Below are positions 838 to 4,714 of a stretch of 11,462 nucleotides of DNA, piece after piece. The stretch's first letter is position 1. Each line of letters begins with the position of its first letter. The stretch lies in assembly GCA_003663535.1 (NCBI GenBank), contig QMUE01000022.1:1-11462 (forward strand), written 5' to 3'. Made by a program: the position numbers and the translations under genes. The notes under the pieces are model-generated. The model saw nothing but the letters and a program-made list of their open reading frames with translations. It did no database searches and was not told the DNA's origin. This DNA is from Thermococci archaeon (GTDB lineage Archaea; Methanobacteriota_B; Thermococci; Thermococcales; Thermococcaceae).

Positions 838-1839
838 ATGAAGAAACTTATTAATAACCCCGAGAACGTTGTAAAAGAAATGTTAGAAGGGATGGTAGCA
901 GCATATCCTGATCTAATAAAAGTGCATTTTAGTCCAAACTTTATTTATAGGGCAGATTCTCCAGTGAAAGGAAAAGTTGCCTTAATTTCAGGTGGAGGCT
1001 CCGGCCATGAACCATTACATGGAGGTTATGTAGGCAGGGGAATGCTTGATGCTGCTTGTCCAGGAGAAGTATTTACATCTCCAACCCCAGACCAAATGTA
1101 TGAAGCTGCAAAGACTGTTGAAGGAGGTGAAGGAATCCTTTTCATTGTGAAAAACTATACTGGAGATGTCATGAACTTTGATATGGCCGCAGACTTACTA
1201 AAAGCAGAGGGGTATAAAGTAGAATCTGTTGTCATTGCAGATGACGTTGCAGTAGAAGAATCTCTTTATAGCGCAGGAAGGAGAGGAGTTGGAGGAACAG
1301 TTTTTGCTGAAAAAATAGGAGGAGCAGCTACTGAAAGAGGATGGTCACTTGAAGAGGTTAAAAAAGTCGTTGAAAAAGTAGCTAAAAATGTTAGATCTAT
1401 CGGCATTGCTTTGACTCCCTGCACTGTTCCAGCGGCTGGAAAACCAACATTTGAACTATCCGAAGATGAATTTGAATTTGGAATTGGAATTCACGGAGAA
1501 CCAGGTAGAAAAAGACTAAAAATGAAACCTGCTGACGAGATTGTGCAAATGATGATGAATGCAATTTTGCAAGATATGCCATTGGAGAAAGGAGACGAAG
1601 TTGCATTGCTCGTAAATGGAATGGGTGGAACACCGCTTATGGAACTTTTTATAGTAAATAGAAAAGTTTCTCAAATGCTTGACGGGATAGGCGTTAAGCG
1701 CTACAAAACACTAGTTGGGAATTATATAACCTCTTTAGAAATGCAAGGAGCTTCAATAACTGTATTAAAACTCGATGATGAACTTAAAGAATTGCTCGAC
1801 GATCCTGCCCTTACGCCGGCTTTGAGATGGAAGGTTTGA
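838..1839 (+). CDS. dhaK: Dihydroxyacetone kinase, substrate-binding subunit DhaK (PTS type)
   Basis: DhaK holds dihydroxyacetone (DHA) and hands it to the nucleotide-bearing DhaL, giving dihydroxyacetone phosphate in the cytoplasm. ATG 838 was chosen because GGAGGGA at 824-830 lies just upstream; the in-frame ATG at 796 lacks such a site and would add 14 unconserved residues. The resulting 333 aa is close to the usual DhaK length. Family landmarks are intact: SGGGSGHEPLHGGYVGRG (51-68) with His57, NYTGD (106-110) with the catalytic Asp110, and GIGIHGEPG (215-223) with His219, the position that forms a covalent hemiaminal with DHA. The end (TPALRW) is typical. It lacks a fused ATP-binding DhaL domain, so it is the split, PEP-dependent type. 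It is the first gene of dhaK-dhaL-dhaM, 36 nt before dhaL. Confidence 0.96.
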   Translation: MKKLINNPENVVKEMLEGMVAAYPDLIKVHFSPNFIYRADSPVKGKVALISGGGSGHEPLHGGYVGRGMLDAACPGEVFTSPTPDQMYEAAKTVEGGEGILFIVKNYTGDVMNFDMAADLLKAEGYKVESVVIADDVAVEESLYSAGRRGVGGTVFAEKIGGAATERGWSLEEVKKVVEKVAKNVRSIGIALTPCTVPAAGKPTFELSEDEFEFGIGIHGEPGRKRLKMKPADEIVQMMMNAILQDMPLEKGDEVALLVNGMGGTPLMELFIVNRKVSQMLDGIGVKRYKTLVGNYITSLEMQGASITVLKLDDELKELLDDPALTPALRWKV

Positions 1840-1875
1840 TTTTGGATTTTCTTACTTTTCCCTGGGGGAACAAAG

Positions 1876-2511
1876 ATGGAATATGACGTAAAATATTTTG
1901 ACAGGTTTGTGAGAATATTCGCAAAATATCTCACTGAGAATAAGGAGTACTTAACTCAACTTGATGCTGCAATAGGGGATGGAGATCACGGGATAAATAT
2001 GGATAGAGGCGCGAGGACGGCACTGGAGCGGTTAGGTACTATGAATCCAAAAACTCCAAGAGAACTTTTGAGGATTGTAGGGATGGCTCTCCTTAGTAGT
2101 GTGGGCGGTGCTGCTGGGCCATTATATGGGACGGTATTTATGAAAATGAGTATGACAATTGGAAACAAAGAGAAAATCGACGATAAGGATCTAGTAAAGG
2201 CACTTGAAAATGCTCTAATTGGCATAAAAACACTAGGAAAGGCTGAAGTTGGAGAAAAAACAATGGTTGATGTATGGGAGCCAGTAGTGGAGTTCCTAAA
2301 AGAGAAAGTGCTAAATGAGGAAAATGAAATCTCCGAGATATGTAGAGAGATTATAAAACTTGCAGAGGAGAGAATGAAAGCCACTATACCTATGCAAGCT
2401 AAAAAGGGCAGAGCTTCATATTTAGGAGAGAGAAGTATCGGCCACCAAGATCCAGGAGCAACAAGCTCGTATTTATTTTTTAAGAGTCTCTGTGAAGCTT
2501 TATCGGAGTGA
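1876..2511 (+). CDS. dhaL: Dihydroxyacetone kinase, ADP-binding subunit DhaL
   Basis: DhaL carries a tightly bound ADP/ATP that acts as a recycled cofactor: it is phosphorylated by DhaM and then phosphorylates DHA on DhaK. The 211-aa length is normal for the family. The metal/nucleotide motif DAAIGDGDHG (30-39) has Asp30, Asp35 and Asp37, at the same positions as in E. coli DhaL. Further conserved blocks are GGAAGPLYGT (77-86), GEKTMVDVWEP (126-136), KKGRASYLGERSIGHQDPG (176-194) and ATSS (195-198). A G-rich ribosome binding site (GGGGGAA, 1864-1870) precedes ATG 1876. The gene sits between dhaK and dhaM in one unit and its stop is 5 nt before the chosen dhaM start. Confidence 0.96.
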   Translation: MEYDVKYFDRFVRIFAKYLTENKEYLTQLDAAIGDGDHGINMDRGARTALERLGTMNPKTPRELLRIVGMALLSSVGGAAGPLYGTVFMKMSMTIGNKEKIDDKDLVKALENALIGIKTLGKAEVGEKTMVDVWEPVVEFLKEKVLNEENEISEICREIIKLAEERMKATIPMQAKKGRASYLGERSIGHQDPGATSSYLFFKSLCEALSE

Positions 2512-2906: not shown

Positions 2907-4464
2907 GATCAAGAAATTCAGCTATTTGCTTTTTGATTTTGGGGATCTTAGATGGGGCAACAGATAGTTCACGAATTCCAATTTCAAGCAGCTTTTCTAT
3001 AATGTGTGCTTTTCCAGCTAGTTCTCCACAGATTGAAACTGGAATATTTGCTTTTGAAAGTTTATTTACGGCCATATTTATAGCAGATAATACAATTTTG
3101 CTCTCATCATTATAGTAACTGGAAACGTTTACATTGTTTCTGTCTGCTGCAAAAAGATATTGGGTCAAATCATTTGTCCCTATACTGACAAAGTCAATAT
3201 AGGGGATAAATTCCTCTATGTTAAAAATGACGGCGGGAACTTCTACCATAATCCCAAGTTTAATCTCCCCATACCCATTGACATCTTTTCTAAGCTTTTC
3301 CAGAAGTTTTCTGACTTCAATTACGTCTTTTGTAACGGTAACCATTGGGATTAATATCTTCAAATTTCCATATTTTGATGCTCGTATAAGTGCTTTTAGT
3401 TGAGTTATTAGTAATTCTTTGTTTTTTAGTAGCAATCTGATTCCTCTTACTCCTAAAAACGGGTTTTCTTCCTTAGGCATATCCAGATAAGAAATTTGTT
3501 TGTCTCCTCCAATATCCAACAGTCTGATAGTCACTTCATTTGGATAAAAGCTTTCTAAAACACGTTTGTATATCAAAAACTGTTCTTCTTCTGATGGAGG
3601 TGATCTTCTATTCAAAAAAAGAAATTCTGTTCTAAAGAGACCAATCCCATCAGCCCCTTTCTTTTTAGCCAAGTCTATCTCCTGCAAGAAGCCGATATTT
3701 GCCATCACTTTAATATCTTTAAATTGTAGTTTGGAGTACTGTTCCAGCTCTTTTTTTTCTTCTTGATACTTTTTGATAATTCGCTTAATTTCTTTAATTT
3801 TGTCAGGGGAAGGATCTATTATTATTTTTCCATAAAATGCATCTACAAACACTGAATGTCCATCATATTTGCTTAGCTCGGGTACATTGTAAATATAGGG
3901 TATTTCTAAAGACATTGCTAAAATTGCCGCATGGCTCGTGTGAGAGCCTTTTTTGCTTAAAATTGCTCCTACCCTACTTTTATATAGCTCTATTATGTCT
4001 GAAGGATACACTTCCTCTACATACACTACATCGTTGGGGAATAACTCCTTCTTCTCTTCCCCGACAATTTCCTTTATTAGAGCATTGAAGATGTCTTTTA
4101 TATCGTATTGCCTCTCTATTATTAACGGATTTCCAGTGTTTATCAGCAATTCTATTATCTTGTCTCTAACGTTTAAGAGGCTTTCAATAGATATCTTTCC
4201 ATTTTTGGCATTTTTCTCAATTTCTGACCACAAGAAAGGATCTGCCAAGATCATCTTGTGAATTTCTGTAATTTCCATGATATCTTTATTGAAACTCTTT
4301 TTTGTATGTATTTTATCAATTAATCTCTCTGCTGCAGCTTTTAGTTCTTTTAGATCGAGTAACATATTTTTGTCCACTTCCAACTTTTTCTTTATATATC
4401 TAAGGGTTCCATAACAATAACCCTCATAGACAATATATTGAGAGGGAACTTTAATTACCTCCAA
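2884..4464 (-). CDS. ptsI: PTS Enzyme I (phosphoenolpyruvate-protein phosphotransferase)
   Basis: Enzyme I takes phosphate from PEP, releasing pyruvate, and passes it to HPr. At 526 aa it is shorter than typical bacterial enzymes (about 570), mostly in the N-terminal half. The phosphohistidine domain has SHTSHAA (174-180) with His178 as phospho-acceptor. The PEP barrel keeps GLFRTEFLF (275-283; Arg278), RLLDIGGDK (314-322), KEENPFLGVRGIR (331-343), VEVPA (407-411; Glu408), SIGTNDLTQY (427-436), ADR (440-442) and ICGELAG (478-484; Cys479). The start is TTG 4464: a stop codon lies immediately upstream in frame and the next ATG is codon 34, inside the conserved N-terminal domain. A strong GGAGGT overlaps the start itself, so initiation may depend on coupling to ptsH, which it overlaps by 14 nt. 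It contains AT-rich stretches compared with tpiA. The 3' end overlaps dhaM by 23 bp. Confidence 0.95.
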   Translation of the reverse strand: MEVIKVPSQYIVYEGYCYGTLRYIKKKLEVDKNMLLDLKELKAAAERLIDKIHTKKSFNKDIMEITEIHKMILADPFLWSEIEKNAKNGKISIESLLNVRDKIIELLINTGNPLIIERQYDIKDIFNALIKEIVGEEKKELFPNDVVYVEEVYPSDIIELYKSRVGAILSKKGSHTSHAAILAMSLEIPYIYNVPELSKYDGHSVFVDAFYGKIIIDPSPDKIKEIKRIIKKYQEEKKELEQYSKLQFKDIKVMANIGFLQEIDLAKKKGADGIGLFRTEFLFLNRRSPPSEEEQFLIYKRVLESFYPNEVTIRLLDIGGDKQISYLDMPKEENPFLGVRGIRLLLKNKELLITQLKALIRASKYGNLKILIPMVTVTKDVIEVRKLLEKLRKDVNGYGEIKLGIMVEVPAVIFNIEEFIPYIDFVSIGTNDLTQYLFAADRNNVNVSSYYNDESKIVLSAINMAVNKLSKANIPVSICGELAGKAHIIEKLLEIGIRELSVAPSKIPKIKKQIAEFLDPKASSRV

Positions 4465-4714
4465 TTACGACACTCTCCACAAGCTTTAGTGCCTTTTCTG
4501 CATCTTCACCCTCTATTACAACTTCAATTTCTTCTCCAGGATCGACTCCCAAAGTTAAAAGACTAAGAACGCTCTTGGTATTAACCGTTTTTCCTTTGTA
4601 GTTTATTATTACCGTGCTTTTTGTATCCGATAATATCCTTACCAATTTTCCAGCGGGTCTTGCATGCAGACCTTCTGGATTCTTAACTACTAGTTTTTTA
4701 ACTATCTTTTTCAT
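4451..4714 (-). CDS. ptsH: PTS phosphocarrier protein HPr
   Basis: HPr shuttles phosphate from Enzyme I to an EIIA protein, here most likely DhaM. ATG 4714 gives 87 aa, the normal HPr size, and has GGTGA a few bases upstream; the in-frame TTG 4726 would swallow this site. The active-site signature NPEGLHARPA (12-21) has the phospho-acceptor His17 and Arg19. KSVLSLLTLGV (47-57) contains Ser48, equivalent to the regulatory Ser46 of Gram-positive HPr. The GEEIEV segment (60-65) and the C-terminal helix fit the fold. It lies 35 nt after tpiA and overlaps ptsI by 14 nt, so all three are probably cotranscribed. No HPr kinase gene is in the window. Confidence 0.95.
   Translation of the reverse strand: MKKIVKKLVVKNPEGLHARPAGKLVRILSDTKSTVIINYKGKTVNTKSVLSLLTLGVDPGEEIEVVIEGEDAEKALKLVESVVIGGN

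What the first reader, a model, noticed from the sequence alone, without database searches (positions are those of the whole stretch)
838..4714. Complete minimal PTS dedicated to dihydroxyacetone in a hyperthermophilic archaeon
DhaK, DhaL, a single-domain DhaM, HPr and Enzyme I are all encoded within 4 kb, and all phospho-transfer residues are visible (Enzyme I His178, HPr His17, DhaM His9, DhaL Asp30/35/37, DhaK His219). No EIIB, EIIC or sugar permease is present, so the relay seems to have one output: PEP + DHA to pyruvate + DHAP. PTS is rare in archaea and, to my knowledge, is characterised mainly in haloarchaea. A phosphohistidine relay working at hyperthermophilic temperature would be notable.
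Basis: partly seen in the sequence, partly recalled or inferred. Interest (0 to 1): 0.82.

Follow-up and report, generated by a model that had tools for sequence, protein, structure and literature searches.

The report
Archaeal phosphate relay for dihydroxyacetone
A probably heat-loving archaeon carries, beside its glycerol-use genes, a full five-protein relay that most likely moves phosphate from PEP to the three-carbon sugar dihydroxyacetone; such systems are known from bacteria and salt-loving archaea, so this is a new and tidy member rather than a new kind.

Summary
DhaK, DhaL, single-domain DhaM, HPr and Enzyme I lie at 838-4714; four pass NCBIfam equivalog-type cut-offs and HPr its subfamily cut-off. 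The named phospho-transfer residues align with solved PTS proteins and Enzyme I models as a complete EI. The host is a Thermococcaceae MAG, 77.8% complete. The block occurs in 5 of 94 family genomes, exactly the five with a Dak1 match. In four of these, one 98% complete, three EIIC families and EIIA_2 gave no match: a single DHA output is supported, not proven. New here: a GTTATAACA-type element precedes dhaK, TIM-HPr-EI and glpF and recurs in relatives; relatives carry fructose and amino-sugar PTSs with their own EI and HPr, which group with the DHA EIs in a quick tree. Corrections: PTS proteins of Thermococcus are already named in public databases; archaeal DHA-PTS is published for haloarchaea; phosphohistidine chemistry in thermophiles is not new. 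None of the 11 Fe-ADH matches in the five genomes is a glycerol dehydrogenase, so the DHA source is open. New member of a known kind.

The parts
838..1839 (+). dhaK, DHA-binding subunit (333 aa); His57, Asp110, His219
   Evidence: TIGR02363 498 bits vs cut-off 406; aligns with E. coli PTS-dependent DhaK 4lrx/1oi2; motif positions
1876..2511 (+). dhaL, ADP-binding subunit (211 aa); Asp30/35/37
   Evidence: TIGR02365 245.5 bits vs 138.3; aligns with 2btd/3pnl
2517..2906 (+). dhaM, single EIIA-man domain (129 aa from ATG; GTG at 2508 possible); His9
   Evidence: TIGR02364 107.6 vs 98.25; aligns with DhaM chains 3ct6/3cr3
2884..4464 (-). ptsI, Enzyme I (526 aa, TTG start uncertain); His178, Arg278, Arg314, Glu408, Asn431, Asp432, Arg442, Cys479; 3' end overlaps dhaM by 23 bp
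   Evidence: TIGR01417 423.9 vs 341.7; 54-row alignment; AlphaFold pLDDT 90; Foldseek to full-length EI
4451..4714 (-). ptsH, HPr (87 aa from ATG; TTG at 4726 possible); His17
   Evidence: TIGR01003 86.9 vs 47.9; PDB matches; alignment
4750..5427 (-). triose-phosphate isomerase, gene before HPr and EI on the same strand (GTG at 5436 possible)
   Evidence: NF003302 343.6 bits vs cut-off 132
5619..6014 (-). DUF1667 protein beside the G3P dehydrogenase-like gene
   Evidence: PF07892 2.9e-31
5998..7263 (-). FAD/NAD-dependent oxidoreductase
   Evidence: PF07992 2e-34
7238..8749 (-). glycerol-3-phosphate dehydrogenase/oxidase-like protein (probably GlpTk type)
   Evidence: best NCBIfam matches G3P oxidase II and GlpA, both below cut-off; neighbourhood as described in PMC11962113
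8864..10387 (-). glpK glycerol kinase
   Evidence: TIGR01311 741.6 vs 590.35
10399..11202 (-). glpF-like MIP channel, possible glycerol/DHA entry
   Evidence: PF00230 1.4e-45; substrate inferred
766..779 (+). GTTATAACA-type element upstream of dhaK
5472..5485 (-). GTTATAACA-type element upstream of TIM-HPr-EI
11321..11334 (-). GTTATAACA-type element upstream of glpF

Best explanation
A soluble, PEP-driven dihydroxyacetone kinase of the PTS type, probably dedicated to DHA. PEP phosphorylates EI His178, then HPr His17, DhaM His9 and the ADP held on DhaL by Asp30/35/37; the ATP so made on DhaL phosphorylates DHA held on DhaK His219. DHAP goes to triose-phosphate isomerase, encoded next to HPr and EI. 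DHA may enter through the GlpF-type channel and be trapped by phosphorylation. The dhaKLM, TIM-HPr-EI and glpF units are probably co-regulated through the shared GTTATAACA element. Shown: genes, residues, complete predicted EI fold, conservation of the set, shared element. Inferred: activity, order of transfer (by homology with bacterial systems, partly recalled), entry route, co-regulation and exclusivity of the DHA output.
For: Family hits; residue alignment to solved proteins; 8 of 8 EI catalytic residues kept in the 12 intact family EIs compared and, where covered, in the two halves of the G002 copy; EI model; Dak1 in 5 of 94 family genomes, each with DhaL, DhaM, HPr and EI beside it, in two gene arrangements; no PF02378, PF00359, PF03611 or PF03609 match in 4 of these 5; element consensus taken from the window's three sites: 18 match rows at up to 1 mismatch in the loci of four relatives, 17 within 350 bp upstream of dhaK, TIM-HPr-EI or glpF, against about 0.65 expected.
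Against: No activity, expression or growth data. The MAG is 77.8% complete and in 300 contigs. None of the 11 Fe-ADH matches in the five DHA-PTS genomes is a glycerol dehydrogenase, so an internal DHA source is unknown. EI and HPr differ more between relatives than DhaK does (EI 55.7-59.8%, HPr 62.8-73.6%, DhaK 88.9-93.7% identity), which fits a single-partner relay but also weaker constraint; the sequence around the EI His varies (SHTSHAA, SHTSHAS, SPTAHAS). In G002 both the DHA EI and glpK are broken by an insert, so the system is dispensable there. Glucitol EIIC, separate EIIB and PRD regulator families were not searched. Genome-wide, the loose form of the element was not enriched over its reversed control.
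Confidence: 0.8

Rival explanations
1. The relay works but is not single-output: EI/HPr also feed a sugar EII or a regulator missed in the unassembled part of the genome or belonging to an untested family.
For: MAG 77.8% complete; G002 has both a DHA PTS and a fructose-type PTS; glucitol EIIC, separate EIIB and PRD domains not searched.
Against: Four DHA-PTS genomes, including G102 at 98% completeness, gave no PF02378, PF00359, PF03611 or PF03609 match; in relatives the fructose and amino-sugar PTSs carry their own EI and HPr.
Confidence: 0.2
2. DhaK-DhaL act as an ATP-dependent kinase and EI/HPr/DhaM serve regulation.
For: DhaL is related to the L domain of ATP-dependent kinases (TIGR02361 108 bits, cut-off 575).
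Against: DhaK and DhaL pass the cut-offs of TIGR02363 and TIGR02365 and fail the ATP-kinase cut-off; best-matching solved chains are PTS-dependent; DhaM, HPr and EI lie beside DhaK in 5 of 5 genomes.
Confidence: 0.05
3. A decaying or non-expressed remnant.
For: The G002 copy is disrupted by an insert in EI and in glpK; patchy distribution (5 of 94).
Against: In the window the five frames are intact with catalytic residues kept; against relatives dN is 0.035-0.39 for the five genes while dS is 1.2 to saturated.
Confidence: 0.05

Closest known systems
Bacterial PTS-dependent DHA kinase (E. coli, Lactococcus DhaKLM)
   Same: DhaK, DhaL and DhaM families and catalytic residues; single-domain DhaM like chain 3ct6 (131 aa)
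   Different: E. coli DhaM is a multidomain protein (473-position model NF008478) and shares EI and HPr with many sugars (recalled); here EI and HPr are separate genes beside the DHA genes
Haloarchaeal DHA-PTS (Haloquadratum HQ2672A-2674A; Haloferax HVO_1543-1546)
   Same: cytosolic PEP-dependent DHA phosphorylation proposed in an archaeon (PMC1544339, PMC2841640, PMC3863723; passages seen)
   Different: Haloferax also has two operons with membrane-bound EII complexes (PMC2841640); here no EII is found, EI lies in the block beside glpF/glpK/TIM, and the host is Thermococcaceae
Rhizobial EI-HPr-DHA kinase clusters (Mesorhizobium loti, Bradyrhizobium)
   Same: EI and HPr genes in one cluster with DHA kinase genes (PMC2405797; passages seen)
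   Different: bacteria; their EIs were not compared here
Fructose-type PTS of Thermococcaceae relatives (G002, G010, G043, G093)
   Same: sister EI group in the tree, similar HPr
   Different: has EIIC and EIIA_2; in G010 also fructose EIIBC, 1-phosphofructokinase and a DeoR-type regulator

Membership tests
PTS-dependent DHA kinase (DhaKLM) | DhaK with DHA-binding His and Asp/His pair | tested here: met
   His219, Asp110, His57 align with E. coli DhaK (roles recalled); TIGR02363 over cut-off
PTS-dependent DHA kinase (DhaKLM) | DhaL of the PTS type with Mg-ADP aspartates | tested here: met
   TIGR02365 over cut-off; Asp30/35/37
PTS-dependent DHA kinase (DhaKLM) | DhaM with EIIA-man domain and active-site His | tested here: met
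   TIGR02364 over cut-off; His9
PTS-dependent DHA kinase (DhaKLM) | PEP-dependent, ADP retained as cofactor, DHAP formed | not testable with these tools
   needs biochemistry
General PTS proteins | EI with His and PEP-site residues and N-terminal HPr-binding part | tested here: met
   PF05524 only just over cut-off (25.6 vs 24.4)
General PTS proteins | HPr with active His | tested here: met
   His17 in GLHARP
HPr-Ser catabolite control (Firmicutes type) | HPr kinase in the genome | tested here: inconclusive
   PF07475 matched 0 of 11 PTS-bearing genomes, but its control rang in only 3 of 14 and not in Bacillus subtilis, which is recalled to have the enzyme
Sugar-transporting PTS | EIIC permease | tested here: not met
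   PF02378, PF03611, PF03609 and also PF00359 gave no match in G000; genome 77.8% complete; glucitol family not searched
ATP-dependent DHA kinase | DhaK-DhaL protein over TIGR02361 cut-off | tested here: not met
   separate genes, 347.5 and 108.4 bits vs 574.95
Haloarchaeal DHA-PTS | common descent of EI with the haloarchaeal one | not tested
   no haloarchaeal EI was in the tree

The most novel reading that the evidence does not exclude
Thermococcaceae run insulated PTS relays, each output (DHA, fructose, amino sugar) with its own EI and HPr derived from one ancestral EI by duplication, instead of the shared EI/HPr hub usual in bacteria; the DHA relay is a transport-free PEP-driven kinase tied by a common operator to glycerol uptake.
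Probability: 0.45. Interest if true: 0.58.

Novelty: new member of a known kind. Interest (0 to 1): 0.42.

Why it matters
It extends the DHA-PTS to Thermococcaceae with a compact five-protein set that could be rebuilt in vitro at high temperature, and offers natural cases of PTS relays that may not share EI and HPr, a direct test of whether a PTS needs a common hub. It also gives a candidate operator for archaeal glycerol/DHA genes, whose regulator is not identified here.

Tried and rejected
The genome-contig scan with EI returned 21 loci, all titled as bacteria, so it gave no named archaeal neighbours. ATP-dependent DAK reading: rejected on cut-offs. HPr-Ser signalling: PF07475 in 0 of 11 genomes, but the control of that search was weak. 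Glycerol to DHA by GldA: all 11 Fe-ADH matches of the five DHA-PTS genomes were classified: four G1P dehydrogenases and one AroB over cut-off, six other iron alcohol dehydrogenases below all cut-offs, none GldA. A GldA over cut-off (433 vs 336 bits) is in G010, which has no Dak1 match. dN/dS: dS is high or saturated, so only dN is informative. In one search simple motif patterns failed in three EIs (G034, G102, G119); the alignment shows the catalytic residues themselves kept. A regulator for the element was not identified; the loose genome-wide pattern (up to 2 mismatches) was no more frequent overall than its reversed control. The patterns were drawn after seeing the relatives' sites; one search used letters of the window sites only, but I had already seen the others and chose the 350-bp limit. 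In one search matches on both strands overlap, so 18 rows are about 12 places; one near TIM in G002 lies inside DUF1667. Tblastn of DhaK against plasmids: 659 records, all under 60% identity, the listed ones bacterial; not used. Papers: searches of an open-access library; none of the papers listed is, by title or opening of the abstract, about a PTS of Thermococcales, but most searches listed only part of their hits. PMC8100219 and PMC11212667 (passages) and PMC8305020 gave nothing on Thermococcales PTS. A PTS in Thermofilum pendens is recalled, not seen.
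Full report
What is there. The window is a contig of a 1.65 Mb, 300-contig MAG, 77.8% complete. From 838 on, eleven genes fill it: dhaK-dhaL-dhaM on the plus strand, and on the minus strand glpF, glpK, a G3P dehydrogenase-like protein, an FAD/NAD oxidoreductase, DUF1667, triose-phosphate isomerase, HPr and Enzyme I. DhaM and EI converge and overlap by 23 bp; HPr and EI overlap by 14 bp. The host belongs to a family searched here in 94 genomes; EIs of two of these end in the same 400 residues as named proteins of Thermococcus aggregans and Thermococcus sp. 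P6, so it is Thermococcaceae, and hyperthermophily is inferred from kinship.

Are the parts complete? DhaK and DhaL pass equivalog cut-offs, DhaM and EI equivalog-domain cut-offs, HPr a subfamily cut-off. In a 54-row EI alignment His178, Arg278, Arg314, Glu408, Asn431, Asp432, Arg442 and Cys479 are invariant; the same eight are kept in the 12 intact family EIs compared (4 beside DHA genes, 4 fructose-type, 4 amino-sugar-type), although the letters around the His vary. Pfam's EI N-terminal domain scores just over its cut-off (25.6 vs 24.4) and the start codon is a TTG, so I checked completeness by AlphaFold: mean pLDDT 90, pTM 0.84. Foldseek's best matches are full-length EI structures (9a4v, 2wqd, 2hwg; TM by query 0.59-0.65) and EI C-domains (TM by target about 0.8).

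Distribution. Of 94 family genomes HPr is in 11, EIIA-man in 6, Dak1 in 5, PTS_EIIC in 4, EIIA_2 in 7, EIIC-GAT in 3; EII-Sor in 1 of the 11 HPr-bearing genomes, the only ones given to that search. The five Dak1 genomes (G000, G002, G034, G102, G119) all carry DhaL, DhaM, HPr and EI beside DhaK. In G000, G002 and G034 EI-HPr face dhaKLM; in G102 and G119 all five lie in one direction, divergent from glpF. TIM, DUF1667, the oxidoreductase, the G3P dehydrogenase-like gene and glpK adjoin in four; in G034 the contig ends in a DUF1667 fragment. Four of the five show none of the four EII families searched; their completeness is 78, 75, 98 and 85%. G002 has a fructose-type PTS with its own EI and HPr, and its DHA EI and its glpK are each split by copies of a ~0.93 kb element (96% identical).

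Other PTSs in the family. G002, G010, G043 and G093 have EIIC and EIIA_2 beside HPr and EI. The G010 locus was scanned gene by gene: fructose EIIBC, fructose-type EIIA, 1-phosphofructokinase, DeoR-type regulator; of the others I scanned only a hexose kinase of the 1-PFK subfamily in G002 and DeoR-type regulators in G043 and G093. In G093 HPr and EI are fused. G008, G015 and G021 have EIIC-GAT and EIIA_2; the G021 locus was scanned for SIS proteins and NagA; in G015 the parts lie on three contigs. G010 has a second PTS with sorbose-type EIIB, a IIC-IID protein, EIIA-man, EIIA_2, SIS proteins and an amidohydrolase. EI tree of 58 chosen rows (quick search, SH-aLRT only, midpoint root): 19 rows holding the four DHA-locus EIs group at 82 (16 of them at 96), beside 7 fructose-type EIs (100); these 26 (100) join the four amino-sugar EIs and a Desulfurococcus MAG EI (31 rows, 100). 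A T. barophilus EI falls among the 19, and a contig of the same length bears a protein named DHA kinase phosphotransfer subunit. No haloarchaeal EI was in the tree, so the source of the lineage is open.

Regulation. An element GTTATAACANTNWA, taken from the window's three sites (766 +, 5472 -, 11321 -), was searched at up to one mismatch in the loci of G002, G034, G102 and G119 (70 kb): 18 match rows, 17 within 350 bp upstream of dhaK, TIM-HPr-EI or glpF; about 0.65 expected from first-order Markov sequences. Overlapping strands reduce this to about 12 places, 11 of them so placed. A longer loose pattern was not enriched genome-wide over its reversed control, but both of its exact matches in the window's genome lie in this locus. 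I read this as an operator shared by glycerol and DHA genes; the binding protein is unknown.

Selection. Against relatives DhaK is 88.9-93.7% identical, DhaL 75-84%, DhaM 68-78%, HPr 63-74%, EI 56-60% (three intact copies), with synonymous change high or saturated. EI and HPr change fastest, the reverse of what a many-partner hub would suggest; this fits a single-output relay and is an inference.

Physiology. PEP + DHA to pyruvate + DHAP, then TIM. The DHA source is open: of 11 Fe-ADH matches in the five genomes none is GldA. The MIP channel may admit DHA (inference). HPr kinase was not found in 11 genomes, but that search's control was weak.

What is known. Haloquadratum was said to use DHA through a cytosolic PTS (PMC1544339); [quoted passage not shown] rhizobia have EI-HPr clusters with DHA kinase genes (PMC2405797); the glycerol genes match the GlpTk neighbourhood of PMC11962113. 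In all five I saw passages only. Verdict: a sound finding, less exceptional than claimed.

Noticed in passing
L055:6150-7439 (-), L064:7662-8957, L065:6936-8231, L066:342-1616: In 4 of 4 amino-sugar PTS loci an Orc1/Cdc6-family AAA+ protein (TIGR02928 228-240 bits, cut-off 181) sits beside an EIIA_2 and EI gene; it might be a replication-initiator relative turned PTS-linked regulator.
   Followed up: partly
L057:10654-11646 and 16859-17744 (G002): A ~0.93 kb repeated element with a 152-aa frame of no Pfam match interrupts both the DHA-type EI and glpK in one relative.
   Followed up: partly
L061:6346-8232 (G093): HPr and EI are fused in one 628-aa protein in the fructose-type PTS of Thermococcus sp. 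P6.
   Followed up: no
protein P0134: A public T. barophilus DhaM of 109 aa begins after the place of the active-site SHS motif, so its annotated start may be wrong or the gene cut.
   Followed up: no
L121:862-1989 (-) (G010): A glycerol dehydrogenase over the NCBIfam cut-off occurs in a relative without a Dak1 match.
   Followed up: no
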